Shown here: one piece after another, positions 34,547 to 54,573 of the stretch
Layout: each line of letters begins with the position of its first letter
How positions within the stretch are numbered: position 1 is the stretch's first letter
Assembly: GCF_000373925.1 (NCBI RefSeq)
Contig: NZ_KB892751.1
Coordinates: 1 to 64,000 of the forward strand
Direction of reading: 5' to 3'
DNA from: Actinopolymorpha alba DSM 45243
Lineage (GTDB): Bacteria > Actinomycetota > Actinomycetes > Propionibacteriales > Actinopolymorphaceae
DNA length: 64,000 nucleotides
The notes under the pieces: generated by a model
Told to the model about the DNA's origin: nothing
The model's database searches: none
Seen by the model: only the letters and a program-made list of their open reading frames with translations
Position numbers and translations under genes: made by a program

Positions 34547-34765
34547 CCCGCGTGGTCGAAACGTACGGTCCGCCCGGCTCTCGGCTCATTTGTGGAGGGC
34601 CCTACGCACCGCCGGTGCCCGCCAAGGTGCCCACCACAATCACCCTTAGAGGGTGGTGCCGCCGTTGGCTTGGTCGGGTCACTCTGAGGTGATGCGGGTT
34701 CGCCTGCGGTCGTGCGGCTGTGGCCGGACCTGCTCCCAGCGCAGCGCGTGAAGGGGGCGAGAGGA

Positions 34766-35581
34766 ATGCCATCTGATCCGCTCGCGGCCGGCCCGGGTGG
34801 TGGCAAGCCACCGTCTGAGCAGGAGACCGCGTCGAGGGTTCCCCCGCAGGCCAAACCGCCAGTGGAGGGTGAGGCTCCGCCAGAAGCACCGGGCAAGGCT
34901 GAGGCCGAAGCCAGGATGCCTGCTCAGGCCCGGGAGGAGGCTGGCGCACCACCGCCGTCCGAACCGCCCCGGGAAGGCGCGATCAGTCGAGGCACCGCCT
35001 CGGTGCTCGTCGCGGCCGGGGACACGTGGGGTTCTGTCCTGGCGTTTGCCTGCGCGAGCATCGTGCTCGGCTTCGTCGTACTGGCGTGGCCGGCGGCGAC
35101 GCTGCAGGTCGTCGCGGTGGTGCTCGGGCTGCAGTTGCTCGTGTACGGGTTTTTCTCGTTCGTCCAGACCATCGCCTTCAGCGAGGCTGAGGGCGGGCGA
35201 CGGTTACTCCACGCCCTGCTCGGGGTCCTGGCCGTCATCGCCGGCGTTCTGGCTCTCCGGAACATCACCGGGACGATCATGGTGCTCGCCGTCATCCTGG
35301 GGTTGTTCTGGCTGGTCGGCGGGGCGATCGCGGTGATGTCGGCGTTCGTGGGGCGGGCTCGTACCGGCCGTGGGCTGACGGTCATCACCGGTCTGCTCGG
35401 GATGGCGGCCGGCATCGTCGTCCTCGTGTACCCGAGCATTTCTCTGGGCGTGCTTGTCACCGTCCTCGGGATCTGGCTGGTGGTGTTCGGAGCCCTGACC
35501 GCGGCTACGGCGTACCAGATGCGCAACGCCGTACGCCGTGAGAACAACCGGCGGAAGGCAGCACCGGCCGCGTCCGCGTGA
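34766..35581 (+). CDS. HdeD-like (DUF308) membrane protein with disordered N-terminus
   Basis: Protein of 271 residues. The first 85 residues are Pro/Ala/Glu-rich and probably disordered on the cytoplasmic side; the rest has about six membrane helices in pairs with repeated GLFWLVGGA/GIWLVVFGA-type segments of the HdeD/DUF308 family. ATG 34766 follows GAGAGGA. Its stop overlaps the GTG start of the next gene. Related in fold to the protein at 54833-55432. Function in Actinobacteria unknown. Confidence 0.8.
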   Translation: MPSDPLAAGPGGGKPPSEQETASRVPPQAKPPVEGEAPPEAPGKAEAEARMPAQAREEAGAPPPSEPPREGAISRGTASVLVAAGDTWGSVLAFACASIVLGFVVLAWPAATLQVVAVVLGLQLLVYGFFSFVQTIAFSEAEGGRRLLHALLGVLAVIAGVLALRNITGTIMVLAVILGLFWLVGGAIAVMSAFVGRARTGRGLTVITGLLGMAAGIVVLVYPSISLGVLVTVLGIWLVVFGALTAATAYQMRNAVRRENNRRKAAPAASA

Positions 35582-36124: not shown

Positions 36125-36904
36125 TTAGCTTCGCGTCGTTGGTGCGCTAGCCGAACTGACGGTGGCGAGGGTGACGCGGGCGGCTTTGACGATCGCCGGG
36201 ATCGAGCCGATCAGGAGAACCAGCGCCCAGACGATCGCCACAACCGCGAGGACGGCGGCGGCCAGATCGTCGACGATGCTCACGACCACGATCGGGACGA
36301 AGCCATGCAGGAAGGCAACAATCACGTTGCACAGAAAGGATGTCAGCACCAGCAGGACGAGTCCCTTGTTCTGAAGGAATCGCTGGTGAGCGAGGACGAG
36401 CGCCAGGGCGAAGATCAGTTTCAACGCCATCAGCAGTGACAGCACGATGCTGGCATCGGAGCGCGGGAAGTAGCCCCAGACCGCGAGGTAGGCGATCGTC
36501 CCGAACGGCGTCGCGAGGAACAAGCTCACCATGATGGACAGCTCGACAATGGTGATGAGCAGCAGGACGATCGCGACGAGGATGAGCACGATCGAGCCAA
36601 CCAGCGTGAGAATTCCCTGCAGTCGACCGTGAAGCCGGTCAGGCACGACCAGACCGACGGCCATCAGTGCGATGCTGTAGAGCAGGATCACATCGACGAG
36701 GGCGAGGTAGCCGATCGCTCGTCCCGGCGGCTCACTTACACCGGAGACCTCAGAGAGCTCCAGATCGCGCCGGGCAGCCTCCTGCAGCAGCCCACCGGCA
36801 GCGGAGCGGCCGCCGAGCAGGAGGGGAGAGCCGAGCTCGACGAGCACGACCAGCCCGATCGCTACCAGACTGATGACGAAGAACGGGATGCGGAGGCGGG
36901 CCAT
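36125..36904 (-). CDS. Polytopic membrane protein at the end of the injection-system operon
   Basis: Protein of 259 residues. First helix at 7-27, then a polar loop of about 35 residues, then about six more helices, some very long and Ile/Leu/Val-rich (LVGSIVLILVAIVLLLITIV). Not recognised as a named family. It directly abuts the single-helix protein gene at 36905 (no gap) and ends the minus-strand series that begins with the tail terminator, so it probably belongs to the contractile injection system as a membrane partner. This role is inference from position only. Confidence 0.65.
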   Translation of the reverse strand: MARLRIPFFVISLVAIGLVVLVELGSPLLLGGRSAAGGLLQEAARRDLELSEVSGVSEPPGRAIGYLALVDVILLYSIALMAVGLVVPDRLHGRLQGILTLVGSIVLILVAIVLLLITIVELSIMVSLFLATPFGTIAYLAVWGYFPRSDASIVLSLLMALKLIFALALVLAHQRFLQNKGLVLLVLTSFLCNVIVAFLHGFVPIVVVSIVDDLAAAVLAVVAIVWALVLLIGSIPAIVKAARVTLATVSSASAPTTRS

Positions 36905-37378
36905 CTACGACCTCCCTGACAGCGTGATCAGACAGGTCTTTCCGAATCCGCAGACCAATGCGATGCTTTCCCGCTTGCCGTCGACCGCGATGGACACGTC
37001 CTTGTCCGCACCGATCTCGTCATCGACGACCACATCGCTCTGTGGCGCCCGGCTCGAGACTGTGATCGCGTTGTGGATGTGTAGACGTACCATCCGGATC
37101 CGCGTGTCGCTCGCCGCGACCCAGAGTGTGCATGATCCTCGGACCACCAGGCGGTCAGGCCGTTCGGCGGCGAAGCAGTCGGCGTCGAGTTGGCTCCGGT
37201 CGACGGTCGCCGGATCGTCCACCCACCGGTCAAAAGCCCGCTCTACAAGGCGTTGGACCTTGTCGACGTCAGGACCACTCGTATTACCAGCCATCCGTCG
37301 TTGGTTCGCGACGACAAGCCCGAACAGGACGACCAGCACCGCGAGGCCGAGCACGGCGGCTTTCTGACCGTTACCCAT
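36905..37378 (-). CDS. Single-helix membrane protein, injection-system operon
   Basis: Protein of 157 residues with one N-terminal membrane helix (about 7-25) and an extracytoplasmic domain that ends in a Cys pair (LVCGFGKTCLITL) near residue 145. Not assigned to a family. Sits 30 bases after the PASTA protein gene and directly before the polytopic membrane protein, so the three form a membrane sub-block at the end of the operon. Confidence 0.6.
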   Translation of the reverse strand: MGNGQKAAVLGLAVLVVLFGLVVANQRRMAGNTSGPDVDKVQRLVERAFDRWVDDPATVDRSQLDADCFAAERPDRLVVRGSCTLWVAASDTRIRMVRLHIHNAITVSSRAPQSDVVVDDEIGADKDVSIAVDGKRESIALVCGFGKTCLITLSGRS

Positions 37379-37408
37379 GCCGTCGCCTCCCTCATTGTTT
37401 GATGAGCG

Positions 37409-38419
37409 TCATTTGAGCAGCTTCTTGAAGGTGATGAACTCACTCGACGGTCCGGAGTTGCCGAACGCATCGACCGCCGTGACCCGCCACTGCACTCTGC
37501 CCGTGTCGTTGAAAAGCCGGAGGATCAACCGGTCGTTGATACCGCCGTTGAACGTCAACGCCGGGGTGAAGCTCGTCTCCTTCGTGGTCTGCGGTGCCGG
37601 CCCGCCGAAGTCGCAGCGGGTTTCGGCAGATCCTCTGACGACAAGCCGGAAGGTGCAGGATTCCTTGCGTACGTCCACCTGGTAGCTCGCGGCGTACTCG
37701 ACCTTCTGCCACGTAAGTGCCGGCACGTTGTCGGCCACCCCGATCGTGGTTCCAGATGCTGGCGACTCCAGGGCCGGGGCGGCCAACGTCACCGCGACGA
37801 TCAGGTCGACTCTCGTCCCTGGTGACACTTCGGTGTTGGGCGACACCGACTGTCGAACGACCGTGCCTGCCTCGCTGGGTTGGTGGCGGTACCGCACCGT
37901 GCCGACCTTGAGCCCGCGGGCCTCGAGGTCCTTCTTCGCCTGGGCAGGTGTCGTCTTTCCGGCAGCGAGGTCGGGCATGGTGACCTCGTCGGACCGGAGG
38001 AGGAGGAACGCGGCAACGGCGGCGACGACGATCACGAGGCCGGCGACCGCGAGCAACCACCATGGTTTCGGCTTGGGAGGGGTCGGCTTCACCTCGAACG
38101 TCACCCGGTTGCTCAGTGTCGAGCTCTCCTCGGGCGCGGTGTTGGCTGAATACACCCGGCCCTGCAGCCAGTACGTACCTGCTGGACTTCCCGGCGGAAT
38201 CTCCACGGTGAGGACGAACTCCACCGACGTGCCCGCGTCGACCCGCTTCTGTGGCGAAGGGACGGTGAACCAGGTCTTCACCGCGCCCTCGCCGGGTACG
38301 GCCTCGAAGACCGCATCGTCGGCGACGGGACCCTCGTTGGTCACCGGGAAACTCACCTCGCCGGAGCCGGACGGTCCCAGCTCCGTTCGCTCGGGTATCG
38401 GACTGATCACCCAGGTCAT
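37409..38419 (-). CDS. Ig-like / transmembrane / PASTA protein
   Basis: Protein of 336 residues. Order of parts: an Ig-like beta-sandwich (about 15-115) with no signal peptide, a single membrane helix (about 125-147), a PASTA domain (about 152-215; MPDLAAGKTTPAQAKKDLEA then VVRQSVSPNTEVSPGTRVDL), and a C-terminal fibronectin-like domain (about 225-336). With no signal sequence the N-terminal domain should be cytoplasmic and the PASTA part outside, where such domains bind peptidoglycan or its precursors. It follows the baseplate genes by 16 bases, so it may connect the injection machine to the cell wall. ATG 38419 follows AGAAGGGATTCC. That role is inference. Confidence 0.75.
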   Translation of the reverse strand: MTWVISPIPERTELGPSGSGEVSFPVTNEGPVADDAVFEAVPGEGAVKTWFTVPSPQKRVDAGTSVEFVLTVEIPPGSPAGTYWLQGRVYSANTAPEESSTLSNRVTFEVKPTPPKPKPWWLLAVAGLVIVVAAVAAFLLLRSDEVTMPDLAAGKTTPAQAKKDLEARGLKVGTVRYRHQPSEAGTVVRQSVSPNTEVSPGTRVDLIVAVTLAAPALESPASGTTIGVADNVPALTWQKVEYAASYQVDVRKESCTFRLVVRGSAETRCDFGGPAPQTTKETSFTPALTFNGGINDRLILRLFNDTGRVQWRVTAVDAFGNSGPSSEFITFKKLLK

Positions 38420-38435
38420 GACGGAATCCCTTCTC

Positions 38436-38969
38436 CTACTGGTGATCGGCAATCACGTCGAACGTCGTGGCGGCCGGTTTCTCGACCGCGATCAGTTGGC
38501 GGACCAGGTCGACCTGCGGAACAGCGGCTGCCGGAACCCTGACCACGAACGCGAACGGGCGGGGTTCCTCGATCACGAAGCCGGTCGCGCCGGTCGCGAT
38601 CTCCAGCAGTAGACAGAGCCCTCGCGAGGTGCCCCGCCACTGCGCCAGTTCCGCGCCGTGGGCGACCAGGTCACGCAGTCGGCCCACCGGGATACGCCCA
38701 GCAGGCGTACCGTCAACGGACGTACGGTCAGCGGGCGTACGGTCGAACCCAGGCACCAGGTGGTCCAGTCCAACCCAGTGGGCAAGGAACGGCACGAACC
38801 GGTCCGGTGCGCGGTATGCGGAGGAAATGTCCTCGATCCGCGCGAGGATCTCCTCTTCTGGTGCGTGCATTCCCTCCATCACGTCGAGGAGGGCGTCGAG
38901 AACGCTGCCGGGCACCACCGCTTGCTGGTAGGCCGAGGGCAGCAGCCGGTCAATCGCGGGGCGTCGCAT
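38436..38969 (-). CDS. Tail-protein-I-like baseplate component
   Basis: Protein of 177 residues resembling phage tail protein I (P2 gpI) and its counterpart downstream of baseplate J in contractile injection systems: RRPAIDRLLPSAYQ at the N-terminus, PDRFVPFLAHWVGLD in the middle and WRGTSRGLCLLLEIATGATG, the family hallmark near residue 115. It likely joins the baseplate wedge to outer parts. The start overlaps the baseplate J gene by 20 bases. Confidence 0.85.
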   Translation of the reverse strand: MRRPAIDRLLPSAYQQAVVPGSVLDALLDVMEGMHAPEEEILARIEDISSAYRAPDRFVPFLAHWVGLDHLVPGFDRTPADRTSVDGTPAGRIPVGRLRDLVAHGAELAQWRGTSRGLCLLLEIATGATGFVIEEPRPFAFVVRVPAAAVPQVDLVRQLIAVEKPAATTFDVIADHQ

Positions 38970-41568
38970 CGTGATACACCACCTCGATGTCGTGGTTTCC
39001 TGAGCAGAGCAACCAGGTGCCGGGAATCGTCACGACCTCCCGGGTCTCGCGGTTGGCGGCAGCAACCCACCGACTCGCGTCGTCGCTGCGGTGGACACCG
39101 CGGGTGCCACCCGCGAGGACCAGGCCCGCGCCGTCCGATGACGCGATGGCAGCGACCGCCGCCACCGGCTCGAATCGCAGCCGGTCTCGAAGAGGCAAGC
39201 CGCAGTTGACATCGGGCGCCTGCCAGTTCAGCCGACCAGACCTCGTGTCCGCGATGAGAACGCCACCGCTCTGGGTCGCGGCAAGGACCCGCCCAGCGGC
39301 GAACGCCACATCCCAGCAGGTGCCACCCACCCACCCCGCCCGGACCGCCTCCCAATGCACGCCGGTCTCGAACAGCCGGGCACGAAAGCAGCCGGGACCC
39401 GGGCGGTTCGGGTCGGGTTCACCAGCACCCACCCACAGCAGCGTCGCCGGCCCGTCGAACTGCACCGCGAGGGTGCGGATGTCGACGCCCTGCAAGCCAG
39501 CGTTGACGAAGGTTCCGGGCTGTCCACCGGCAGTGGAGATGTAGACGCCGTACTGTGCCTGCGCGGCCACCGCGACGCCGGGAACGCCACGCTCAGACAC
39601 GAACGTCGCGACAGCGGCGAAACCGCGATCGGGATCGGAGGGCTCGACGAGCACCTGGAGAGGGACCGAACCAGGGAGCAGCGGAAGTTCGTAGAGTCCG
39701 GCGTCGGTTGCCAGGAGGAGACCATCTGTGGCGTCCCGGTCGGTCCAGGCCAGGTCGGTGATCGCTGGTTCGAGTTCGGCCACCCGGTGCCAGGTCTCGC
39801 CGAGGTCGCTCGACACGTAGACACCGGACGCGGTCCCGTCCTGCCGCCTCGTCAGTGCCGCGACCCGGCCGGCCCTGGCGGTCATGCCCGGCCGGAGCGC
39901 CGCGGGCGCCGGCACGATCCGGCGTACCTCCTCGCCGGGGAATCGCCCGACGGGCTCCCAACCGCGTCCGCCATTGGTGGAGCGGCACAGCAACTCACCG
40001 CACCCGGCGTACCACGTCTCTGGTTGGAACTGGTCGGCCGCGACCGCCCGCACAGAGGCATCCGGTGCGTCCTCCACGACGAACCGCACGTCGTCGACGT
40101 ACCGGACGCCTGGCTCGGACTCTTCGAGCATCCGGTAGACGTTCGACGCCCGGAGTGGTTCACCGAACCGCCATCCGGTTGGGTTCCGCGGTGTCGGCAA
40201 TGGGCTGATCGCCTCGTAGAGCCGGTCGTGCAAGCGTCGCCGGACCGCGGCGAGGTCCTCGTCCCGGCGTACCACAACCCGGCCGATCACCGACACCGCC
40301 TTGCAACGGGCCCAGGCCGCCAGGCAGCTGGTCCCCAGCGCCTGACGGCGCCGCAGGTCGTCCTCGACCCGGGCCCGGGCCGCCTCGACCTGGTGGTCGA
40401 GCAGGACGCCGGCCGGAAGCCGCCAGCCCGGCCGGGCAGTGTCATCGACCGCGGGCACGAGGACAACTTCCACCTCACCTGGCGAGGCGAACGACCACAT
40501 CGCCGCCCGGGTGAACGCCTTGGCGCGGGCGACCGCGCCGGCGTTGGCCGTCGCGAGCAACTCGAAATCGCGGGCGGTCACAGCGCGCTGCTGGGAGAGC
40601 ACCTCGGCGGGACCACGCGCGAGGACCGAGTCGATCGACTCCAGCGCACACCCGCCGCGTGCTGGCGCCTGGTTGGTGACGCGTACGCCTGGCAGCGGAT
40701 CAAGCAGCCTCGTAAGGACTCCGGCCGCGACATTGCCGCTTGCCCCGCCGCCCGTGCGGTACCACAGACGTACCTCTGTGTTCGCCGGTGGAACAGCGGC
40801 GATGGTCGTCAGCACGCCCGATCCCGCATTCCCAGCAGACCGCAGATCGAGAGCGGGCGCGAACGTCACGGTCCCCGACGCCCGGTCGAGCAGGTAGACC
40901 CGCGCGCCCGGTTCGACTCCCGCGAAGGTCGCCACCGGCTGCCAGATCTCGAAGGTCTTACCGGCGAACTCCCGTACGACCGCCCCCTCGCCGGCCGTCC
41001 CTCGGCGGATCTCGACTCCGAGCATCAGGTCGTACGGCTCAGTGGTGGTCGTGAGTGGAGCCTTCGAGGCCCGCAGGCTCTGGCCCGGCAGGCCGGTCCC
41101 GATCCCGAGCAACTCGCCCTCGACCACAGTGCAGTGGTACGCGCGGACAGTGGTCTCGTCCTGCCCAGCGGGGATTTCGCCCGCCTCGGTGGTGACGAAC
41201 ACGATCGGCTCGTTGGCGTCACGCTCGGCGCGTACCTTGGTGCCGACAGGGATCGCGATCGGCGGCTTCGGTGCCGCCGCGCCCGCCCGCCCGTTGCGGC
41301 TGAAGGTGAGGTCGGCCCAGGCGGCGGCCGGCGGATGGCGAGGGACCCTGAGCAGGTTGAGGAACTCGACGTACGCCTTCTCTGGCACGCGGTTCAGCCG
41401 GTAGAGCATCACCTCCATGAGGTGCGCGAACACCTCGACCAACACCATGCCCGGGTCGTGGATCGACAGGTCGGTCCAGGTCGGACACGTCCGCGCGATC
41501 CGCTCGCGCGCCTCCAGCACGAGATCGACGAAGGTGCGGTCGTCGAGGTCGGGGACGGGCAGGGTCAT
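38950..41568 (-). CDS. Baseplate J-like wedge protein fused to a beta-propeller
   Basis: Protein of 872 residues. The first 505 or so are a baseplate J/T4 gp6-type protein (Afp11 counterpart): FVDLVLEARERIARTCPTWT at the start, LSIHDPGMVLVEVFAHLMEV, and the central RGPAEVLSQQRAVTARDFE. The remaining 365 residues are unusual: repeated strands with Asp-box motifs (STNGGRGW and SSDLGETW) and propeller-like GVYISTAGG, indicating a BNR/sortilin-like beta-propeller. Such a domain on the wedge could bind sugars or proteins on a target surface, or organise the baseplate. Its start overlaps the gp25-like gene by 4 bases. Confidence 0.88.
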   Translation of the reverse strand: MTLPVPDLDDRTFVDLVLEARERIARTCPTWTDLSIHDPGMVLVEVFAHLMEVMLYRLNRVPEKAYVEFLNLLRVPRHPPAAAWADLTFSRNGRAGAAAPKPPIAIPVGTKVRAERDANEPIVFVTTEAGEIPAGQDETTVRAYHCTVVEGELLGIGTGLPGQSLRASKAPLTTTTEPYDLMLGVEIRRGTAGEGAVVREFAGKTFEIWQPVATFAGVEPGARVYLLDRASGTVTFAPALDLRSAGNAGSGVLTTIAAVPPANTEVRLWYRTGGGASGNVAAGVLTRLLDPLPGVRVTNQAPARGGCALESIDSVLARGPAEVLSQQRAVTARDFELLATANAGAVARAKAFTRAAMWSFASPGEVEVVLVPAVDDTARPGWRLPAGVLLDHQVEAARARVEDDLRRRQALGTSCLAAWARCKAVSVIGRVVVRRDEDLAAVRRRLHDRLYEAISPLPTPRNPTGWRFGEPLRASNVYRMLEESEPGVRYVDDVRFVVEDAPDASVRAVAADQFQPETWYAGCGELLCRSTNGGRGWEPVGRFPGEEVRRIVPAPAALRPGMTARAGRVAALTRRQDGTASGVYVSSDLGETWHRVAELEPAITDLAWTDRDATDGLLLATDAGLYELPLLPGSVPLQVLVEPSDPDRGFAAVATFVSERGVPGVAVAAQAQYGVYISTAGGQPGTFVNAGLQGVDIRTLAVQFDGPATLLWVGAGEPDPNRPGPGCFRARLFETGVHWEAVRAGWVGGTCWDVAFAAGRVLAATQSGGVLIADTRSGRLNWQAPDVNCGLPLRDRLRFEPVAAVAAIASSDGAGLVLAGGTRGVHRSDDASRWVAAANRETREVVTIPGTWLLCSGNHDIEVVYHDATPRD

Positions 41569-42026
41569 GGCGCCACCTCACCGGGAACGGGCTCGAGGTC
41601 GAGCTGGAAATGGACGACATCGGTGGCCAGACTCGAGCGGACCAGGTAGTGCAGCTCGACATTGAGGCGTTCGGGTACCCGCGGGTCGGCGTCCGCGTCC
41701 ACGGTCAGAACGTCGACCCGGGGTTCCCATCGCTGGACCGCGTCGCGTACGTAGTGGATGGCAAGCCCAGCGGTGGTCTGGTCGTTCGGCGCGAAGACCA
41801 GGCGGTGGAGCTGAGAGCCGTAGGTCGGCCGCATCAGTCGCTCACCCGGACGCGTCGAGAGCAGCAGCAGGATCGCCTGGCGGATCGAGTCGTCGCCCTC
41901 GACCATCGCCAACCCGCCGGTGGCCGTGACGTTGAGGCCCATGGTCGTCCCGGCCGGCGAGGCAGTGCCGGCCGGCGCTCCGGCGCCGACGCCGGCGAAG
42001 TGGAGAGCACGGTAGGAGGCGGTCAT
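41565..42026 (-). CDS. gp25-like baseplate wedge protein
   Basis: Protein of 153 residues of the GPW/gp25 family (Afp9 counterpart): MVEGDDSIRQAILLLLSTRP then PGERLMRPTYGSQLHRLVFA is the family core, with a beta-rich C-terminus. In related machines gp25 nucleates the sheath at the baseplate. ATG 42026 follows GGCGGT-poor sequence but overlaps the upstream gene by 4 bases, implying coupled translation. Confidence 0.9.
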   Translation of the reverse strand: MTASYRALHFAGVGAGAPAGTASPAGTTMGLNVTATGGLAMVEGDDSIRQAILLLLSTRPGERLMRPTYGSQLHRLVFAPNDQTTAGLAIHYVRDAVQRWEPRVDVLTVDADADPRVPERLNVELHYLVRSSLATDVVHFQLDLEPVPGEVAP

Positions 42027-42361
42027 CGGTCCGCCCCCACATACGCCTGGCCCGACTGACGGACCTGGTAGTGGATGGTGCCGGGAACCGTGCCGTCGGT
42101 AAGTCCGTCGAGGTTGTCGAGAACGATGCGGTGCGTGCCAATCGTGAGCCAGGTGCTGTAACCCTTGGCCACCCGCAAAGTAGTGGCGCAGGGCTTCATC
42201 GTCGGGCCGGCGTTCGGGCACGCGGTGATGGTCCGGCCTTCAGGGTCAGCGGCGACGAGCACCGGAACCCCGCCGATGGTCACCCAGCCCTGCGACGGCT
42301 TGTTCTTGACCCGACCGTCATGCCCGCACGTGATGACCGCTGCGGCGGTTACCCATCTCAT
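42023..42361 (-). CDS. Small spike-tip candidate (PAAR-like position)
   Basis: Protein of 112 residues between the VgrG/gpD-like spike and the gp25-like wedge, the usual place of the PAAR-type tip (Afp10). No PAAR motif is clear by eye, but Cys and His residues (TCGHDG near residue 11 and CPNAGPTMKPC near 47-57) could bind a metal, as in spike tips, and the sequence is beta-rich (STWLTIGTHRIVLDN). Both neighbours overlap it by 4 bases. The assignment rests mainly on position and length. Confidence 0.65.
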   Translation of the reverse strand: MRWVTAAAVITCGHDGRVKNKPSQGWVTIGGVPVLVAADPEGRTITACPNAGPTMKPCATTLRVAKGYSTWLTIGTHRIVLDNLDGLTDGTVPGTIHYQVRQSGQAYVGADR

Positions 42362-43983
42362 GACCGCACCTCCTGGTCTTCCGGTTCGGGTGCGTGCGCG
42401 AAGTCGACGGTTGCGGCCCGGATGGTCAGCTTCCGACCAGGCGCTTCAACCACCAGGTCGGTCTGAGCATGCAGGCGCACCAGATCGGGTCCGAGTTCGA
42501 CGAAACTGCCGGAGCCGTCCGCGATTCGAATCCGGCGCTGGTCGTCGTCGAGCAGGATCGAATGGCCGGACGGTGTGGAGAACGACCAGCGGCGGACCGC
42601 GCCGTCGACGATTCCGTTGTCAGGTGGAGCGATCTGTCCGAAAATCGAGCCGATCACAATGCCGTCCGCTGATATCCCATGCGGCAAAGCCACGAGCACC
42701 GTGTCATCGACATCGGGGAGCGCCACGATTCCCTTGTCGCGGCCGGCTCCTGGGCAGAGCACCGCGAGCCAGCCGGCGTCAAGGTCGCCTTGCGCTGGAA
42801 GGTTCACGCGGACTCGGCCGAGACCTTCCGGGTCATCGACGTTCGTGACCCGACCGAGGGTGATCGTTGAGTCCGTTGGCGCGTGGGCTGGTGTGGGTGG
42901 TTCGGTCGAGAACGCCGTACGAAAGCCGGTGCCATCCAGCGTGTGGATTGCCTCGGTCAGGACGTACGTCCCTTGGAAAGCGGTGGCAACACCGCGCAGG
43001 TCGACGCGAGTGCCAGCGCGAAGCGATGTGTCCCCCTCGGCCACACCGTGAAGCGTCACGACCTGCCCGGCACTCGCGTCGAGTCGTGCCTGGGCGAACC
43101 CGGTGAGTTCGTCCACACCACGTCCCGTCAGGTCAGTGTCCGCCCACTCCTCGGCCACGCCGGCGGTCAAGGAGGCGACGTCGAGGCCGACCCGGGCTCC
43201 ACCTCGTGCGGTTGTTGCGCGTTCGTCCATCACCTCGGCCCGTTGGGCATGCCATCCCAACGCGCGGATGCGATGGCGTGCCCTGGAGGCGTTGACCGCG
43301 ATCCGGGCCTCGAGCAGGGAGGTACCGAGGTCGAGCGGCACGGGGTCGCCGTTTCCGGCAAGCGTGACGAGCCGGAGTTCGCCGTCGACCAGGACCAGGT
43401 GGAGTCCCGCGTGATTGGCGGTCGCGGCGAGCAGCTCGAAGTCGGACTGGCTGTGCTGGACAATCCGGTCGCTGCGCGGTCCTGGTTCGTCGGCGTTCAC
43501 CTGGATACCGAGGTCACTGGTCAGTGTGCTCGCGAGGTCGGCGACTGTGACGTCCTCGAACACCCGCAGCTGTTGCTGCCGGCGCAGCCGATGCAGAACG
43601 TCGTACGCCCGGATCCGGAGCAGGGCCTCGCCGTCAGGCCCATGGACCAGCTCGACCGCGCTCACCTCACCGTCGAAGCCCGCGGTCGTCGGAGTGGTGA
43701 CGCGCCCGGGCACTGACACTTCGATGCGCGCGCCGATCGGGATGCTGTCGTACTCGGCCGCTGATCCTTGCCAGGTCGCGAACGCGAGCTCGCACTGCGT
43801 CGGCAGCGACAGCCGGGACGCGATCCGCAGCGAGACAAGAGAACGGCGGACCGACTCCGCGACGGGACGGCCGTCCACCCGCAGATCGACGCTGGGTATG
43901 GCCGCGCTGGGCATGACCGCGCTGACCCCCACCGCGCTGGATCGGCTTCCTGCCGCGGGGAACGCTTCGTCGAGAGTGGTCAT
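42358..43983 (-). CDS. VgrG/gpD-like baseplate spike protein
   Basis: Protein of 541 residues that forms the central spike and hub (Afp8 counterpart, combining T4 gp27-like and gp5/gpV-like parts). Residues about 35-330 are the late-control-D-like hub domain (IGARIEVSVPGRVTT, then EDVTVADLASTLTSDLGIQV), and about 370-480 the OB-fold of baseplate protein V (GRVTNVDDPEGLGRVRVNLP and DTVLVALPHG). The C-terminal 60 residues look like a beta-helix start. No attached toxin domain is seen. The N-terminal 35 residues are low complexity. Confidence 0.92.
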   Translation of the reverse strand: MTTLDEAFPAAGSRSSAVGVSAVMPSAAIPSVDLRVDGRPVAESVRRSLVSLRIASRLSLPTQCELAFATWQGSAAEYDSIPIGARIEVSVPGRVTTPTTAGFDGEVSAVELVHGPDGEALLRIRAYDVLHRLRRQQQLRVFEDVTVADLASTLTSDLGIQVNADEPGPRSDRIVQHSQSDFELLAATANHAGLHLVLVDGELRLVTLAGNGDPVPLDLGTSLLEARIAVNASRARHRIRALGWHAQRAEVMDERATTARGGARVGLDVASLTAGVAEEWADTDLTGRGVDELTGFAQARLDASAGQVVTLHGVAEGDTSLRAGTRVDLRGVATAFQGTYVLTEAIHTLDGTGFRTAFSTEPPTPAHAPTDSTITLGRVTNVDDPEGLGRVRVNLPAQGDLDAGWLAVLCPGAGRDKGIVALPDVDDTVLVALPHGISADGIVIGSIFGQIAPPDNGIVDGAVRRWSFSTPSGHSILLDDDQRRIRIADGSGSFVELGPDLVRLHAQTDLVVEAPGRKLTIRAATVDFAHAPEPEDQEVRS

Positions 43984-44741
43984 GGTCGCCTCACTTCCGC
44001 GGTCGTCTCCAGCGGTGGAACGGCGAGGACGGTGCCCGGCAGGACCTCGAAGGGGTTGGCGATGTCGTTGTGCTTGGCGAGGAGACGCCACAGGAAGGGA
44101 TTGCCGAGCCCGTCAGTGGCCAGCAGGTCAAAGCGGACGCCGGAAAAGCCCGGCCCGGCCGAACCATCACCGACGGCTTTGACGGCGGCTGGGGTGGTCG
44201 TCTGGCCGGGCACCGCGCCGGCGACAGGAGCGGTTTGTCCCCGGGCGAGCTCTTCTTCGAAACTGTTGTGGGCAAGGGCTGCGGAGTCAGCGACCCTGAC
44301 CAGCTTCATCCGCAGCCACGAACGACGCGGACTTCCGTACCCATCGAAGGCGTCGAACCGTTCGGCGACCGAGGCGATGACTCCGGGGACGTTCCAGGTC
44401 TTGCCCCACACCAACCGCACCCGGGGAGGACGGACCGATCCGCGTTCCTCGGCGGAGTTCTCGGCGAGCAGCCACAGCCGGCGGGTCAGGGTACGCACGT
44501 CAGTGGGTGCGGCCTTCGTCTCGACGAAATCCACGTCGAAGAGCAGGTCGAGGCGGATCTCGGTACGGCCGCCGCCCGTGAACTGCAACGGATCATCGGC
44601 GAGGCCGGCGCCGACCAACTGGCCGCGCTCTGAGCCGCGAGGACGAATGCCGGCGAGCCGGGTGACCTCAACCGTCTCGGGGTTGAGCAGGCAGTCGATC
44701 CGTTCGCCGGTCTCGTCAACCAGGAAGGCAACGCGTTCCAT
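43980..44741 (-). CDS. LysM-type tube-baseplate adaptor (Afp7-like)
   Basis: Protein of 253 residues of the contractile injection system tube-adaptor family. N-terminal beta domain (about 1-150; LDLLFDVDFV and RVRLVWGKTW), then a Gly/Pro-rich linker, and a C-terminal LysM-like end (LWRLLAKHNDIANPFEVLPG then VLAVPP). It links the tube to the spike. ATG 44741 directly follows a GTG at 44744; the stop of the upstream gene overlaps the ATG by one base. Confidence 0.87.
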   Translation of the reverse strand: MERVAFLVDETGERIDCLLNPETVEVTRLAGIRPRGSERGQLVGAGLADDPLQFTGGGRTEIRLDLLFDVDFVETKAAPTDVRTLTRRLWLLAENSAEERGSVRPPRVRLVWGKTWNVPGVIASVAERFDAFDGYGSPRRSWLRMKLVRVADSAALAHNSFEEELARGQTAPVAGAVPGQTTTPAAVKAVGDGSAGPGFSGVRFDLLATDGLGNPFLWRLLAKHNDIANPFEVLPGTVLAVPPLETTAEVRRP

Positions 44742-45781
44742 CACGCACCTCGCTGCTCGTCGTCGAGGCGGCGGACGTGGTCAGGGTCGGTGAATGCCGG
44801 GTGGGGTGGGGTCCACAGCACGGAGTCATCCAGCAGTGCCGGCCACGGATCGAACGGCGAGGGATCGAACGGCGAGGGATCGAGTGGCGACGGATCGAGT
44901 GGCGACGGATCGAACGAAGACTGGCGGGACGGTTGCGGGTCCGATGCCCACGGGGCGGATGGCCATGGGGCCGATGGCCGTGGGTCGAATGGGCTCGGGA
45001 CGGATGGCGAGGTGTCGCGAAGCCGAGCTCCCAAAGCTGGATCGATCGGTGCGGTGGAGGACCACGCCGATGAGGCGGACCCGGGTGAGACGGACGTTGG
45101 TGGGCGCTCAGTTCGGTTCACGGAAAGGGCTCGTACCGACCTAGGTGCGTACGCGGGCTCTGCGACGGTGGGACGGGCGCGATGCACTGGCGACGGTGCG
45201 GCCGCTTCGGCGGGCGGTTCGGCAACCTCGACGGGCGGTTCGGCCACCTCGACCGGGGGCGCGGCCACCTCGACCGGGGGCGCGGCCACCTCGACCGGGG
45301 GCGCGGCCACCTCGACCGGCGGTATGTCGGAGGTGTCTCTGGTTGGCGTCGGTTGGACCGGGAGCTCTGTCGGACTCTGGCGCTCGAACGGTGCTGGCGA
45401 CCAGTGAGTCGGCGGATCCCTGCGGACAAGCGCTAACCAATGCGCCGGTGGCTGACGAACGGAATCCGCACCTTCGTTGACGTTTCCCGGGCCGTTGGTG
45501 CCCTGGACCTCGCTGTCCGGTACTCCGTCCTCAGCCCAGTCGCGGCTGTCTGCCCATTCGCCTTTCGCCCAGTTGTTTTCGGGGCAGTTGTTTTCCGCGG
45601 GTTCAGTTCGCACGGGGTCGCTTTCCGGCCGACCGGCTGCTGACCGGTCCGATGGCGGCTCCACGACCAGCGCGTGCTCGAGCCGGGAAGCGTGCTGGGC
45701 CAGGGTTTCCAGCCAGCGGGCGACCACGTTACGCAGCAGGCGTAGCACCACCGCCACCTTCTTCGCGAACAATCCCTTCAT
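44741..45781 (-). CDS. Disordered Pro-rich repeat protein of the injection-system operon
   Basis: Protein of 346 residues, mostly low complexity and probably unfolded. Only the first 40 residues (an amphipathic helix, LFAKKVAVVLRLLRNVVARW) and the last 35 (ending HVRRLDDEQRGA) look ordered. Between are five VEVAAPP/VEVAEPP repeats (about 152-186) and four FDPSP/LDPSP repeats (near 300). It overlaps the tube gene by 53 bases; GTG 45757 is a later possible start. The position matches the small variable Afp6-like slot between tube and adaptor. Role unknown: linker, scaffold or cargo are possibilities. Confidence 0.7.
   Translation of the reverse strand: MKGLFAKKVAVVLRLLRNVVARWLETLAQHASRLEHALVVEPPSDRSAAGRPESDPVRTEPAENNCPENNWAKGEWADSRDWAEDGVPDSEVQGTNGPGNVNEGADSVRQPPAHWLALVRRDPPTHWSPAPFERQSPTELPVQPTPTRDTSDIPPVEVAAPPVEVAAPPVEVAAPPVEVAEPPVEVAEPPAEAAAPSPVHRARPTVAEPAYAPRSVRALSVNRTERPPTSVSPGSASSAWSSTAPIDPALGARLRDTSPSVPSPFDPRPSAPWPSAPWASDPQPSRQSSFDPSPLDPSPLDPSPFDPSPFDPWPALLDDSVLWTPPHPAFTDPDHVRRLDDEQRGA
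44847..44906 (-). repeat. 15-bp tandem repeat
   Basis: Four units of GGATCGAACGGCGAG with small changes, encoding the five-residue FDPSP/LDPSP repeat of the disordered protein. Confidence 0.85.
45220..45324 (-). repeat. 21-bp tandem repeat
   Basis: Five units of about CGGCCACCTCGACCGGGGGC(G), the middle ones identical, encoding the seven-residue VEVAAPP repeat. The near identity suggests recent expansion. Confidence 0.9.
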
Positions 45782-46223
45782 GGGCGATGACGAGCGCCTC
45801 GATCGCGATGCCGTTGCCCATGGCGTCGAATGTGGGTGCCTTCCATGCCTGCGGCCAGGCGTTGCGCAGGTGCCAGCGCATCACTTCCTGCGAGCCGGAT
45901 GGATCGAGGACGAGGAGGTAGACGCTGCGTCGGAACTGCTGGTGGTTGACGGCGGACATCAGCCACTCCCACATCGCGCGTGAGGAAGTGAGGCCGGCTT
46001 CCAGGACGACGGGCCCGTAGGTCACCCGGCCGGGTATGGCGCGGACAACCGCGTTGTTGCCGGCCTCGCGATACGACAGCCGCTCGACGCGCGCCTCGAG
46101 GTCTATGATCCGGGTGAAATGGCCCACGGTAATGCCGTCGATGATGAGCTTGAAGTTGTAGTCGCGGTAGGGATCTATGGTGGTGCCCGGCGAAGCGGCC
46201 GGGCGGGCTGTGGTCTCGGCCAT
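45729..46223 (-). CDS. Contractile injection system tube protein
   Basis: Protein of 164 residues of the T4 gp19/Afp1 inner-tube family: DPYRDYNFKLIIDGITVGHF at the N-terminus and the strand pair YGPVVLEAG and YLLVLDPSGSQEVMRWHLRN are diagnostic. It stacks in rings to form the tube pushed out on sheath contraction. Only one tube gene is visible, whereas many injection systems have two or three. It starts 1 base after the sheath gene stop and its end overlaps the disordered-protein gene. Confidence 0.94.
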   Translation of the reverse strand: MAETTARPAASPGTTIDPYRDYNFKLIIDGITVGHFTRIIDLEARVERLSYREAGNNAVVRAIPGRVTYGPVVLEAGLTSSRAMWEWLMSAVNHQQFRRSVYLLVLDPSGSQEVMRWHLRNAWPQAWKAPTFDAMGNGIAIEALVIAHEGIVREEGGGGATPAA

Positions 46224-46224
46224 C

Positions 46225-47496
46225 TCAGGCTCCTTGGTTCTCGGATTCGGCTCCGGCCATCGACTGGCTGAGCTTGAACACCACGAATTCCGCGGGTTTG
46301 ACCGGCGCGACCCCGATCAGTGCCACCACCTGGCCCGCGTCCCGCACATGCGGGGGATTGGTTTCCTCGTCGCACTTGACGAAGAACGCCTCAGCCGGCG
46401 TACGACCAAACAACGCGCCGTCGTTCCAGACCCGGGTGAGGAAGGCCCTGATCTCACAGCGGATGGAGGTCCAGAGGGTGTGATCGTTGGGTTCGAAGAC
46501 GATCCAGTTGGTGCCCTCTTCGATTGACTCCTTCAGCATGTTGAACAATCTGCGTACGTTGAGATAGCGCCACTCGCTTGCTTCTGCCGCGAGGGTGCGA
46601 GCTCCCCAGATACGGATGCCTGAGTCGGCGAACGCCCGGATGCAGTTCACCCCCTTGGGGTTGAGCAGTTCCTGTTCCTGCCGCGTGACCTGGTAGGTGA
46701 GGTCGACAACCCCGCCGGCGATGGGTTCGTTCGCCGGTGCTTTGTGAACGCCGCGCTGGGTGTCGTTGCGTGCCCAGACGCCAGCGACGTGACCACTCGG
46801 CGGAGTGGGCACCGTCGTCCCGGTGACCGGGTCGTAGGCCACCAACCACGGAACATAGAGCGCGCCGTACGCCGACTGCCGCGGCCGAAGACCCGAGTTG
46901 TCGTCGCCTGGTGGAGTTTCGGTGCCGGCGTCGGTTTCCTCGTCCGAACCACTCGGCGCGCTCGATGCGCTTGTCGTGGTCGTACGCCGGACCGGGCGTG
47001 GATCGGAGCCCATGACTCTTGTCAGGCGTTCGACATCCTCGACTTCGGCCGGCCCGTCCAGGATCGCGACCCGGTCACCACGCGGCGGCTCGCAGTGGGT
47101 GAGCAGAGCCTCGTACGCCAGGGCATCGGTGTAGCCAGGTGCAGCCACGATGGCGATCTCGTCGATGGGTTCCAGCAGCTGGAGTCCCGAACGTTTCCGG
47201 CCGCCGCCAGCGATTGGTTCGCCTTCCTCGACGTTGACGATGTAGCAGCGACCACCACCGTTGGCGAAGAAGCCGTACACCGCCCGGACGAGCGGGGTGC
47301 TCATCGATTCGCCCTCGACAAGGAAGGTGGCGGCGAACTCCGTCCAGTTGTTCACCGGGACGGCCCGATCCCGGGCGACGGATCGGTTCGGTGCCGTACC
47401 AACAAAGCCGACCGTGCTGGTGCCGACCGCACCAATGGGGTGGGAACCGCCCGGCACCTCTTCGACATAAACACCGGGTGCGGCATAGGTGGGCAT
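46225..47496 (-). CDS. Contractile tail sheath protein
   Basis: Protein of 423 residues forming the contractile sheath. Hallmarks: MPTYAAPGVYVEEVPGGSHP with the usual GVYVEE start, GRCYIVNV, and the C-terminal handle region (NVRRLFNMLKESIEEGTNWI, then AEFVVFKLSQS). A Ser/Thr/Glu-rich insertion (about 168-202) is a likely surface loop. The length is in the range of short sheaths with a single extra domain. Only one sheath gene is present. Two bases separate it from the upstream terminator gene. Confidence 0.96.
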   Translation of the reverse strand: MPTYAAPGVYVEEVPGGSHPIGAVGTSTVGFVGTAPNRSVARDRAVPVNNWTEFAATFLVEGESMSTPLVRAVYGFFANGGGRCYIVNVEEGEPIAGGGRKRSGLQLLEPIDEIAIVAAPGYTDALAYEALLTHCEPPRGDRVAILDGPAEVEDVERLTRVMGSDPRPVRRTTTTSASSAPSGSDEETDAGTETPPGDDNSGLRPRQSAYGALYVPWLVAYDPVTGTTVPTPPSGHVAGVWARNDTQRGVHKAPANEPIAGGVVDLTYQVTRQEQELLNPKGVNCIRAFADSGIRIWGARTLAAEASEWRYLNVRRLFNMLKESIEEGTNWIVFEPNDHTLWTSIRCEIRAFLTRVWNDGALFGRTPAEAFFVKCDEETNPPHVRDAGQVVALIGVAPVKPAEFVVFKLSQSMAGAESENQGA

Positions 47497-47498
47497 AG

Positions 47499-48260
47499 TC
47501 AGTTCTCCTCGAGATCGCAGTGAATGACGACCGGATCGGTGTCGGTGCCCGGACTGGTTCCGGTGGCCTGGTCGGCCGGCTGGGTATCGACCTCCGCCAC
47601 CAGCCGGCGTCCCTTGACGGTGAGGCGGAGCTTCGACCGGTCCGCGGCAGGAATGCCAGCGATCGTGAACGTGCCGTCGTTTCGGGTGCGGGTCGTCTTG
47701 CCGGTCGCCAGGTCTTCGACGTCGACACCGGCCATCGGGACATCACCCGGACCGACGAGGCGCCCCCGTATCGACCGCATCGTGACCTCGCGCACCTGCA
47801 GCGGGGTACGAACGGCCGGCGCCTCGGCGGTGGTCCTTGCGACCTGGGCGGGTACGTCGAGGATGAGCGCGGTACGCGGCCGGGCCCGCAACGCCTGCCA
47901 CAGTGCGGGGACCAACGGATCGACCACGAGCGTGACCTCGCGCGCGGCCACGGCAGCGACCAGCACCGGGTCCAGGACGGGTGCGGCCTCGTCGGTGCCG
48001 GCGACCGTCACCAGGTACCGCACCCTGAACCTGAAGGGCTCCCGCTGCCAGACTCCCCGAAACTCCTGTTCTGGTTGGAGTTCCAGTGGCCAGACGCGCA
48101 GGCCTGCCGACTCCGAGGGATCGTCCACGGGCGGACCGAGGGTGACCGGCGTATCGGTGACCTGGGCAAGCCAGTCGAGGAGAAGCGCTGTCGCGCCGGC
48201 GAAAGGGCCGCCCGCGGATGCGGGCGGCGCCCCCGCAAGGCTCTGGCGGGAAGCACCCAT
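47499..48260 (-). CDS. Tail terminator (Pvc16/Afp16-like) with carboxypeptidase-regulatory-like domain
   Basis: Protein of 253 residues. The N-terminal 160 resemble the tube/sheath terminator of injection systems (ATALLLDWLAQVTDTPVTLG and FRFRVRYLVTVAGTDEAAPV). The last 90 form a carboxypeptidase-regulatory-like beta-sandwich: IRGRLVGPGDVPMAGVDVED followed by TRNDGTFTIAGIPA. A similar fold occurs in the small protein at 51377-51871 of the protease operon. Terminators cap the distal end and stop growth of tube and sheath. First structural gene of the operon. Confidence 0.8.
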   Translation of the reverse strand: MGASRQSLAGAPPASAGGPFAGATALLLDWLAQVTDTPVTLGPPVDDPSESAGLRVWPLELQPEQEFRGVWQREPFRFRVRYLVTVAGTDEAAPVLDPVLVAAVAAREVTLVVDPLVPALWQALRARPRTALILDVPAQVARTTAEAPAVRTPLQVREVTMRSIRGRLVGPGDVPMAGVDVEDLATGKTTRTRNDGTFTIAGIPAADRSKLRLTVKGRRLVAEVDTQPADQATGTSPGTDTDPVVIHCDLEEN

Positions 48261-48293: not shown

Positions 48294-48635
48294 CTACGCC
48301 CAGGAGTTGATGAACCGCTGCTGGTTCTGCGCGACAGTGGTCTGGCTGGGCTGACGGTTCTGCGCCGGGAACTGGTTGATCCCCATCGCGGTCGCGAAGA
48401 TCAGCAGTCCGTTGATGGGGGCGATCACCCACGTCAGCACGTCCGAGTCAGGAACCAGCCCGGCCGCCAGGAAGGCCAGTCCCAGCGCGACGACGAGCGC
48501 GACCCACTTGCGTGCCTTGTCGAAACCGCTGCCGATCAGCCAGCCCAGCGTGTTCGGTACGAACCACGCGATCCCGGCCGCACCCTGCAACGTCACGAGG
48601 CTGGTGATCGTGAACAGAGAGTCGAGGTTGCCCAT
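48294..48635 (-). CDS. Small three-helix membrane protein heading the injection-system operon
   Basis: Protein of 113 residues with three hydrophobic segments (about 8-32, 40-58 and 64-85) and a Gln/Asn-rich polar tail. The size resembles a holin, but no holin family is recognised. ATG 48635 follows AAGGGGAAAG. It lies 33 bases before the terminator gene and 165 bases after the CHAT protease gene, so it may be the first gene of its own transcript. Role in release or membrane docking of the particle is possible but unproven. Confidence 0.65.
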   Translation of the reverse strand: MGNLDSLFTITSLVTLQGAAGIAWFVPNTLGWLIGSGFDKARKWVALVVALGLAFLAAGLVPDSDVLTWVIAPINGLLIFATAMGINQFPAQNRQPSQTTVAQNQQRFINSWA

Positions 48636-48800
48636 GGCTTTCCCCTTAGAAGACGTGTGCCGTGGGTACGGCTCCACGATGTGTTCTGTTGCTCGATAAG
48701 GGGCGCGACCTGCCGTCCAGATACGTCAATGGGCGGATTTGTTCGCGAGGTGTGGGCGCAATCGAATTCAGCCGGCGCGGAGCGCTCGGCCCCTTTGAAC

Positions 48801-54245: not shown

Positions 54246-54287
54246 GCCGCTCTCCATCCCGCCATGGCCGCCGATGCGCTGGCCCTC

Positions 54288-54347
54288 ATTGATTAAGGGA
54301 TCTCGTGGCCTCCGCAGATACATCGAGATGGTCACGAATTGATTAAG
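54288..54347 (-). promoter_or_regulatory. Paired CTTAATCAAT direct repeats upstream of the protease operon
   Basis: ATTGATTAAG occurs at 54288-54297 and 54338-54347, exactly 50 bases apart, in AT-rich sequence unusual for this genome. On the minus strand they read CTTAATCAAT and precede the S8 gene by 31 and 81 bases. Candidate binding sites of a regulator of the operon. Confidence 0.5.
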
Positions 54348-54399
54348 ATCTGGCTGGCTCGCGTCGCGCGACCTCTTAGCTGACTCTGGGCGTGGGGGG

Positions 54400-54573
54400 T
54401 TGCGCGCGGAGTGGGATGGCCCGGCGGTCCGCGCCGAGATCGACGCGTTCGTGGTGCTCGCGAACCTGGCCACCGCAGTCGGGCACACGTTGATCGATGT
54501 CGAGCTGTATCTCCCGCGATCCTGGACATCCGACCTGGACCGGCGGGCTGGAGCCGCAGGCTTATCCGGCGAA
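54400..54573 (+). pseudogene. IS701-type transposase remnant, internally deleted
   Basis: The frame reads WDGPAVRAEIDAFVV joined directly to ATAVGHTLIDVELYLPRSWT, two conserved segments of IS701-family transposases that are normally separated by about 55 residues, including the region around the first catalytic Asp. The frame has lost its beginning and end. A perfect 18-bp hairpin follows immediately. Inactive relic at the edge of the injection-system region. Confidence 0.6.

What the first reader, a model, noticed from the sequence alone, without database searches (positions are those of the whole stretch)
36125..38419. Membrane block with an Ig-TM-PASTA protein as possible anchor to the cell wall
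The protein at 37409-38419 has a predicted cytoplasmic Ig-like domain, one membrane helix and an external PASTA domain, which in other proteins binds peptidoglycan. It comes 16 bases after the tail-I-like gene and is followed by two further membrane proteins. Membrane partners that link cytoplasmic injection systems to the envelope are known in Streptomyces; this one has a different build, so it may be a new type of docking protein.
Basis: partly seen in the sequence, partly recalled or inferred. Interest (0 to 1): 0.68.

Follow-up and report, generated by a model that had tools for sequence, protein, structure and literature searches.

The report
Membrane module of an injection system
Next to a bacterial phage-tail-like syringe sit three membrane proteins that related bacteria keep together with this syringe, one of them with a part that may reach into the cell wall, and they probably form the spot on the cell's own membrane where the syringe docks and fires.

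Summary
Window 37409-38419 (-) encodes a 336-residue protein: Ig-like domain, one helix (122-140), PASTA (146-209) and a further C-terminal domain. It starts 16 bases after tail-I and precedes two more membrane genes.

Relatives change the weighting. The six-helix protein (36125-36904) was found in 14 genomes (3/396, 8/293, 8/162 in overlapping samples): 13 times within 2.4 kb of the tail-I gene of a contractile injection system (CIS), once cut by a contig end. The four-cysteine protein (36905-37378) is in all 13 loci. An Ig-TM protein is in 10 of 13 (three contigs end early), with PASTA in 8 of 10. So the small neighbours are fixed and PASTA is exchangeable.

The Ig-TM protein is no detectable CisA homologue. 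Its Ig domain and build match CIS-locus proteins of the Sco4256-4258 kind, published as effectors or putative toxin. Against pure cargo: no cysteine before the helix, even numbers after it, and Sco4256 is listed as a membrane glycoprotein.

Best reading: a wall-linked docking and firing site on the producer's membrane (0.5); main rival, a Sco4256-type effector (0.3). New variant of a known kind.

The parts
37409..38419 (-). Ig-TM-PASTA bitopic protein, 336 aa: Ig-like domain about 1-110 (inside), helix 122-140, PASTA 146-209 and a C-terminal domain 211-336 with two Cys (outside)
   Evidence: orthologue L010:10001-11077 at 54%; kin in 10 CIS loci
36905..37378 (-). small bitopic protein, 157 aa, N-terminal helix 7-25, outer domain with four Cys (68, 83, 143, 149), the only invariant columns of the 8-sequence alignment
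   Evidence: family in 13 of 13 CIS loci that carry the six-helix protein
36125..36904 (-). six-helix membrane protein, 259 aa, most conserved of the block; its model resembles the membrane domain of cation diffusion facilitators
38436..38969 (-). tail-I-like baseplate protein, directly upstream of the block
   Evidence: Tail_P2_I E 0.0012, just under cut-off; conserved in the related loci
38950..41568 (-). Baseplate_J protein, 872 aa, with a C-terminal extension (from about 533) that the Streptomyces-type counterpart lacks; speculative contact site
41565..42032 (-). gp25-like baseplate wedge
   Evidence: GPW_gp25 E 1.9e-25
42023..42361 (-). small conserved protein between spike and gp25
   Evidence: conserved in related loci; no Pfam match at 0.01
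42358..43980 (-). spike/hub protein (Phage_GPD + Phage_base_V)
43980..44744 (-). CIS_tube-family hub protein
   Evidence: CIS_tube E 4.1e-13
45729..46223 (-). inner tube protein (gp19)
   Evidence: E 4.9e-32
46225..47496 (-). short sheath, 423 aa; best PDB matches 8bky/8bl4 (534-539 aa; recalled as Streptomyces CIS sheaths, the call names only the molecule)
47499..48260 (-). protein upstream of the sheath, probably the cap by its place; in G289, G446 and G686 the Ig-TM genes lie just upstream of its counterpart

Best explanation
The block encodes the membrane partner of a short-sheath, presumably cytoplasmic, contractile injection system of Actinomycetota. The Ig-TM-PASTA protein has the build of Sco4256: its Ig-like domain faces the cytosol, one helix spans the membrane, and the disulphide-bonded outer part with PASTA reaches into the cell wall. 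Together with a small four-cysteine bitopic protein and a six-helix membrane protein, which are the fixed members, it most likely forms a membrane site that holds the particle by its baseplate and lets it fire outward through the producer's own membrane, with the outer domain as wall grip or sensor. Shown by computation: genes, domains, kinship of the Ig domains, linkage to the CIS. Strongly suggested: the topology. Inferred only: disulphides, assembly into one complex, contact with the baseplate, binding to peptidoglycan, docking and triggering.
For: Linkage: six-helix protein in 3 of 396, 8 of 293 and 8 of 162 sampled genomes (overlapping samples; 14 distinct); 13 of 14 within 2.4 kb of tail-I, one cut by a contig end. 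A full-length short sheath was seen in 10 of these 13; in G671, G701 and G706 the contigs end before it. None of the 32 phylum-sample genomes whose sheath match is only partial has the six-helix protein. Four-cysteine protein in 13 of 13 loci; Ig-TM protein in 10 of 13, the other three contigs ending before the sheath gene. Topology: 0 Cys before the helix in 14 of 14 Ig-TM proteins and an even number after it in all 13 that have an outer domain. Gene order: in the window the block sits where Streptomyces has cisA, which is needed for firing (PMC12237407, abstract and sections 3, 7, 9 read). Conservation: the six-helix protein (71% to A. pittospori) evolves like baseplate parts. Published: Sco4256 was detected in all three particle preparations (PMC10020575, passage) and is listed among membrane glycoproteins of S. 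coelicolor (PMC6593405, Table 1, passage), so part of it is probably outside the producer's membrane.
Against: Sco4256-4258 were published as effectors: toxic in E. coli, and the tube lumen is mostly empty in the triple mutant (PMC10066040, section 11), which docking does not explain. Several Ig-TM paralogues with a constant inside and a changing outside in one locus (G289, G446, G663, G720) also look like effectors with a loading domain. The Ig-TM gene lies upstream of the sheath in four genomes and in both places in a fifth, not always at the baseplate end. Basic residues before the helix outnumber those after it in only 9 of 12 proteins (equal in 3), and in the Streptomyces-type pair the balance is reversed, 2 before and 3 after. 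PMC6593405 itself notes three apparently cytosolic glycoproteins. Eight of the 14 genomes with the six-helix protein supplied its profile. No interaction was computed. G661 has a lone short sheath without the block.
Confidence: 0.5

Rival explanations
1. The Ig-TM-PASTA protein is a payload of the Sco4256 kind: the constant Ig domain loads it into the particle, firing puts it into a membrane, and its outer domain acts at the wall. The other two membrane proteins protect the producer or place the payload.
For: Kinship and same build as two CIS-locus proteins of the Sco4256-4258 kind (HMM E 1e-8 and 7e-8; hhalign probability 94%, E 1.2e-7 over 93 columns); Sco4256-4258 were reported as effectors from toxicity and empty tubes (PMC10066040, section 11 read). 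Constant N-terminus with changing C-terminus and two copies in several loci.
Against: The very hydrophobic helix (mean 2.3-3.3 on the Kyte-Doolittle scale) with at least one basic residue in front of it in 11 of 12 proteins looks like ordinary membrane insertion; a cysteine-free inside and even cysteines outside fit export in the producer; Sco4256 is listed as a membrane glycoprotein (PMC6593405, passage).
Confidence: 0.3
2. The four-cysteine and six-helix proteins are self-protection or membrane-repair partners that shield the producer from its own system, and the Ig-TM protein is the only active partner.
For: They are invariant companions of the baseplate end; the six-helix gene lies on the strand opposite to tail-I in G135, G289, G446, G675 and G686, as expected if it must be expressed separately.
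Against: Immunity genes usually vary with the effector (general knowledge); here the six-helix protein stays while the outer domain of the Ig-TM protein changes.
Confidence: 0.12
3. The block is a holin-like lysis module that releases particles from the cell, with PASTA bringing it to the wall.
For: Membrane genes at the end of a phage-tail-like operon.
Against: No wall hydrolase domain in the block by Pfam; a 259-residue six-helix protein with a CDF-like model rather than a small holin; not found in the genomes of the phylum sample with other sheaths.
Confidence: 0.05

Closest known systems
Sco4256, Sco4257 and Sco4258 of the Streptomyces coelicolor CIS (PMC10066040, PMC10020575)
   Same: CIS-locus protein with N-terminal Ig/chaperone-like domain, one helix, changeable C-terminal domain; detectable similarity of the Ig domain to a Streptomyces-type pair
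   Different: Outer domain is PASTA in 8 of 10 loci instead of a ricin-type lectin; about 100 residues shorter before the helix than the G193 pair; in the window it follows tail-I instead of lying upstream of the sheath; toxicity and loading not known
CisA (Sco4242), membrane protein needed for firing of the S. coelicolor CIS (PMC12237407)
   Same: Gene position after the baseplate genes, one helix, N-terminus inside and C-terminus outside (predicted here, shown there)
   Different: No detectable sequence kinship; Ig domain without Cys instead of a long mostly disordered region with a zinc ribbon; PASTA instead of the CisA C-terminal domain; the two small membrane families are not in the Streptomyces-type locus L103/L104
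PASTA kinases and PBPs (PknB, PonA2)
   Same: PASTA outside, one helix, functional domain inside (general knowledge); solved PknB-type and PonA2 PASTA chains match the family profile
   Different: Ig-like domain instead of kinase or transpeptidase
Membrane domain of cation diffusion facilitators (YiiP, ZnT)
   Same: Predicted fold of the 36125 protein (best row Z 17.2, rmsd 3.9, 202 aligned; first non-CDF row Z 6.0)
   Different: No sequence match in the PDB at E 1, Foldseek best E 0.45, no conserved metal-site residues in helix 2, no cytosolic CDF domain; for mostly helical models a best Z near 14 is usual (note)
T6SS membrane complex (TssJLM) and thylakoid-anchored CIS
   Same: Possible role: holding an injection system at a membrane (recalled, and PMC12237407)
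   Different: Comparison of role only; no sequence test against them was made

Membership tests
Sco4256-type CIS-associated bitopic proteins | encoded in a CIS gene cluster | tested here: met
   10 loci with Ig-TM proteins, all with CIS genes
Sco4256-type CIS-associated bitopic proteins | N-terminal conserved Ig/chaperone-like domain with sequence kinship | tested here: met
   HMM of the short-sheath clade hits the L104 pair at 1e-8 and 7e-8; they are the only G193 hits up to E 1e-3; hhalign 94%, E 1.2e-7. That the L104 pair is of the Sco4256 kind rests on its build, place and ricin lectin domain, not on an alignment with Sco4256 itself
Sco4256-type CIS-associated bitopic proteins | single helix and variable C-terminal domain | tested here: met
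   PASTA one to three times, LamG, META, or no Pfam match (Cys-rich by eye)
Sco4256-type CIS-associated bitopic proteins | toxic on expression, needed for a filled tube lumen, present in particles | not testable with these tools
   bench results of PMC10066040 and PMC10020575, for S. coelicolor only
CisA | sequence kinship | tested here: not met
   the CisA-like protein of G193 (L103:7480-8955) has no tblastn hit at E <= 1e-4 in 17 stretches of the related loci, while baseplate proteins of the same locus do hit; none in the own genome at 0.01 (an empty answer without a positive control)
CisA | gene directly downstream of the baseplate genes | tested here: met
   16 bases after tail-I
CisA | Cys-rich, perhaps zinc-binding stretch before the helix | tested here: not met
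   no Cys before the helix in 14 of 14 proteins
PASTA domain (PF03793) | profile match over the curated cut-off | tested here: met
   window 49.8 against 23.2 bits; 8 of 8 proteins scanned; not met in the G663 and G720 pairs and in L084:3707-4318, which ends after the helix
PASTA domain (PF03793) | binds peptidoglycan | not testable with these tools
   bench question; not all PASTA domains bind (recalled)
Cation diffusion facilitator | six-helix membrane fold | tested here: inconclusive
   28 CDF rows at Z 17.2 to 7.3 lead the second-look list, first other row 6.0, on a model of mean pLDDT 82.9 from 8 sequences; Foldseek alone not significant, helical models often reach Z 14
Cation diffusion facilitator | metal site (acidic/His pairs in helices 2 and 5; motif recalled) | tested here: not met
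   alignment A1: no invariant D or H in helix 2, no conserved HxxxD in helix 5
Cation diffusion facilitator | sequence kinship | tested here: not met
   no CDF match in 8 of 8 members at Pfam E 1; no PDB sequence at E <= 1
Class IId eCIS | published subtype assignment | not tested
   no subtype model on hand; the sheath's best PDB matches are 534-539 aa sheaths, about 110 residues longer

The most novel reading that the evidence does not exclude
Monoderm bacteria have built their own trans-envelope anchor for contractile injection systems, unrelated to the T6SS membrane complex: a cytosolic Ig hook on a wall-reaching protein with exchangeable outer domain (PASTA, LamG, META, lectin), plus a four-cysteine protein and a six-helix CDF-like protein. 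By kinship the Streptomyces Sco4256-4258 'effectors' would be parts of the same kind of dock, native membrane proteins of the producer and not cargo.
Probability: 0.33. Interest if true: 0.8.

Novelty: new variant of a known kind. Interest (0 to 1): 0.6.

Why it matters
How cytoplasmic injection systems of Gram-positive bacteria reach and fire at their own membrane is open; the membrane partner described in the papers read here is CisA, in Streptomyces-type systems. Here is a second, unrelated set of membrane genes that was found only with one CIS subclass, and a testable conflict in the literature: the Sco4256 kind is called an effector on the basis of toxicity and empty tubes, while an independent glycoproteome lists it as a membrane glycoprotein.

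Tried and rejected
Tried: search of viral contigs with the six-helix family (24 pattern matches, none a relative) and with the Baseplate_J protein (no match); these need close matches, so weak negatives. One scan of genome contigs with the Ig-TM-PASTA protein gave one locus, A. pittospori. Phylum search with the Ig-TM-PASTA protein: of 5 genomes with hits among 396, own, G135 and G289 are in CIS loci; G381 and G303 match only over residues 110-210 and 85-215 inside longer frames (741 and 653 aa), without matches to window CIS genes in the fetched stretches, and were set aside as probable PASTA kinases, a label not tested.

Genome-wide search with the N-terminal Ig+TM profile in 52 genomes: at E 1e-3 it does not separate genomes with another CIS sheath (7 of 32) from listed genomes without a sheath match (5 of 20); only the four hits below 1e-4, in G113 and G193, fall in CIS genomes. 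So this profile is no general CIS marker. The G113 hits lie about 22-24 kb from its sheath; cluster membership was not checked.

Four-cysteine family: the model is poor (mean pLDDT 61), so no fold is claimed and no fold search was run. In L101 and L126 the profile match is weak (0.08 and 2.4e-4); membership there rests on position and on four cysteines (by script for L101; by eye for L126). Baseplate_J extension: no PDB relative (best E 0.41), Pfam BNR repeat only at 0.68, so a beta-propeller is untested. Foldseek gave no significant match for the six-helix model (best E 0.45).

Rejected: CisA homology; ordinary unlinked membrane genes; chance ORFs (dN/dS). The promoter and terminator scan was uninformative. 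Left unexplained: G661 has a short sheath alone among non-CIS genes on its contig and no six-helix protein; G671 has the block and baseplate genes but no sheath match anywhere at E 1e-20, its contig ending inside the tube gene; G708 has a partial six-helix match at a contig end and no other CIS match on the 11 kb visible.

Papers: PMC12237407 abstract, sections 3, 7, 9 and passages; PMC10066040 and PMC10020575 section 11 and passages; PMC6593405, PMC13277306, PMC12998442, PMC2000904, PMC12402492 passages only; others only as search listings. No paper joining PASTA with CIS was found (no hits; 15 of 88 and 40 of 108 hits listed, none with both; open-licence library only).
Full report
1. What is in the sequence. 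The minus-strand operon of the window runs from sheath (46225-47496, 423 aa) and tube through hub, spike, gp25, Baseplate_J (38950-41568) and a tail-I-like gene (38436-38969) into the block. The ATG of the Ig-TM-PASTA gene lies at 38419, 16 bases after the tail-I stop and behind a good ribosome-binding site. Pfam finds PASTA at 146-209 with 49.8 bits against a cut-off of 23.2. The single helix is at 122-140. The next gene (36905-37378) has one N-terminal helix and four cysteines; the last (36125-36904) has seven hydrophobic stretches by a simple count. The own genome holds one copy of the Ig-TM-PASTA protein and a second sheath gene elsewhere. By its relation to G420, whose coordinates fit the A. 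pittospori record, the window probably comes from the genus Actinopolymorpha.

2. Are the genes tied to the injection system? A full-length match to the 423-residue sheath was found in 3 of 396 genomes of the phylum sample and 8 of 293 of the order sample, own genome included in both; the other sheath matches cover parts of the query only, most of them in open frames over 500 residues, some shorter. The six-helix family, searched as a profile, was found in 3 of 396, 8 of 293 and, in the family of G446, 8 of 162 genomes. The samples overlap; 14 genomes are distinct. In 13 of the 14 the gene lies 0.4 to 2.4 kb from tail-I; in G708 a partial match lies at a contig end and cannot be judged. A full-length short sheath was seen in 10 of the 13 genomes (in G663 on another contig; G720); in G671, G701 and G706 the contigs end before it, and G671 has no sheath match at all at E 1e-20. 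Eight of the 14 genomes supplied the profile, so the fair test is the other six, five of them beside tail-I, and the absence of further hits in the three samples. In the phylum sample the two sets of three coincide (Fisher p about 1e-7), but those three are profile members and genomes are related, so the number overstates the case. G661 has a lone short sheath without the block.

3. Which part is fixed? The four-cysteine protein is in all 13 loci; 11 matches have E 9e-37 or better (eight of these are the profile's own members), two are weak (2.4e-4 and 0.08) but have four cysteines in corresponding places. The four cysteines are the only invariant columns. An Ig-TM protein is found in 10 of the 13 loci; the other three contigs (G671, G701, G706) end before the sheath, and G595 of the same genus label carries the gene upstream of the sheath. 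It lies after tail-I in the window, A. pittospori, G135, G663 and G720, upstream of the sheath in G446, G595, G675 and G686, and in both places in G289, where the copy after tail-I looks frameshifted. PASTA passes the cut-off in the nine proteins with a full outer domain from eight loci, once or three times per protein, in one case with a LamG domain behind it; a second G446 copy (L084:3707-4318) ends after the helix. In G663 the outer part is a META domain in one copy and unmatched in the other; both G720 copies are unmatched, Cys-rich by eye, and have no PASTA at E 1. So the inside is constant and the outside is exchanged.

4. Topology. None of the 14 Ig-TM proteins of the clade has a cysteine before the helix; all 13 with an outer domain have an even number after it (2, 4 or 6). 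For the 12, that is 0 in 1615 residues before and 36 in 2434 after. At the cysteine rate of nine soluble CIS proteins of the window, none before the helix would have a chance of about 2e-6, though related proteins are not independent. Basic residues in the 15 positions before the helix outnumber those after it in 9 of 12 proteins and equal them in 3; in the Streptomyces-type pair it is 2 against 3, which does not help. On balance this fits a protein whose N-terminus stays in the reducing cytosol and whose C-terminus is folded outside the producer.

5. The nearest known things. The profile of the Ig+TM part hits two adjacent proteins in the CIS locus of a Streptomyces-like genome (G193; E 1e-8 and 7e-8 among the locus ORFs; the only G193 hits up to 1e-3; hhalign probability 94%, E 1.2e-7). 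One has a ricin lectin domain at its C-terminus, the other matches ChW. That is the published build of Sco4256-4258: similar N-terminus, one helix, ricin-type C-terminus in two of three, called CIS-associated effectors because they are toxic in E. coli, because tubes of the triple mutant are mostly empty and because it behaves like CIS mutants (PMC10066040, section 11 read). PMC10020575 (section 11 read) describes the first domain as like pilus chaperones and calls Sco4256 a putative toxin and particle component. Neither main text holds words beginning with glycosyl or glycoprotein, but the S. coelicolor glycoproteome lists SCO4256 as a membrane glycoprotein and cites coupling of this modification to export (PMC6593405, passages); the same text admits three apparently cytosolic exceptions. 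CisA, at the same gene position in Streptomyces, is bitopic and needed for firing (PMC12237407), but the CisA-like protein of G193 has no match in 17 stretches of the related loci. No paper joining PASTA with CIS was found.

6. The six-helix protein. The model (mean pLDDT 82.9, pTM 0.77) resembles the membrane domain of zinc transporters of the CDF family: 28 CDF chains lead the second-look list with Z from 17.2 to 7.3, the first other chain is at 6.0. Against it: mostly helical models often reach Z 14 (note), sequence searches find nothing, Foldseek alone is not significant, and the metal-site residues are not conserved. I take it as a possible fold resemblance without transport function.

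7. Reading. The block is best seen as the membrane partner of a short-sheath CIS: two invariant membrane proteins and a Sco4256-like, wall-reaching partner. Docking and outward firing through the own membrane is the most likely role (0.5), a Sco4256-type effector the main rival (0.3). Gene identity, domains, linkage and kinship are computed here; topology is strongly suggested; complex formation, baseplate contact, wall binding and triggering are inferred.

Noticed in passing
38950-41568: The Baseplate_J protein is 831-872 aa in the eight related loci measured against 652 in the Streptomyces-type counterpart; in the alignment nothing of the latter pairs with the window protein beyond about residue 550. 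Candidate particle-side contact for the membrane block.
   Followed up: partly
48801-51380 and 52560-54488: A CHAT caspase-like protein and an S8 subtilase are encoded upstream of the CIS genes on the same strand; a CHAT-like match is also in the G135 locus (L011:16273-18621).
   Followed up: no
34712-35581 (+) and 54833-55432 (-): Two DUF308 membrane proteins flank the CIS operon on both sides.
   Followed up: no
44741-45781: Proline-rich protein with tandem VEVAAPP-like repeats between tube and hub genes; in A. pittospori only 33 residues near its end matched.
   Followed up: no
48294-48677: Small membrane protein with two hydrophobic stretches in the same operon; no relative in the loci compared.
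   Followed up: no
L017 (G000:C85): A second phage-tail-like cluster with a 552-aa sheath in the same genome, without significant matches to the three membrane families.
   Followed up: partly
L011:14916-15779: Membrane protein with a HEAGH motif (metallopeptidase-like by eye) beside the CIS of G135.
   Followed up: no
L012:9085-10401: Ig-TM-PASTA paralogue of G289 carries a LamG (concanavalin-like) domain behind PASTA (E 3.6e-26).
   Followed up: no
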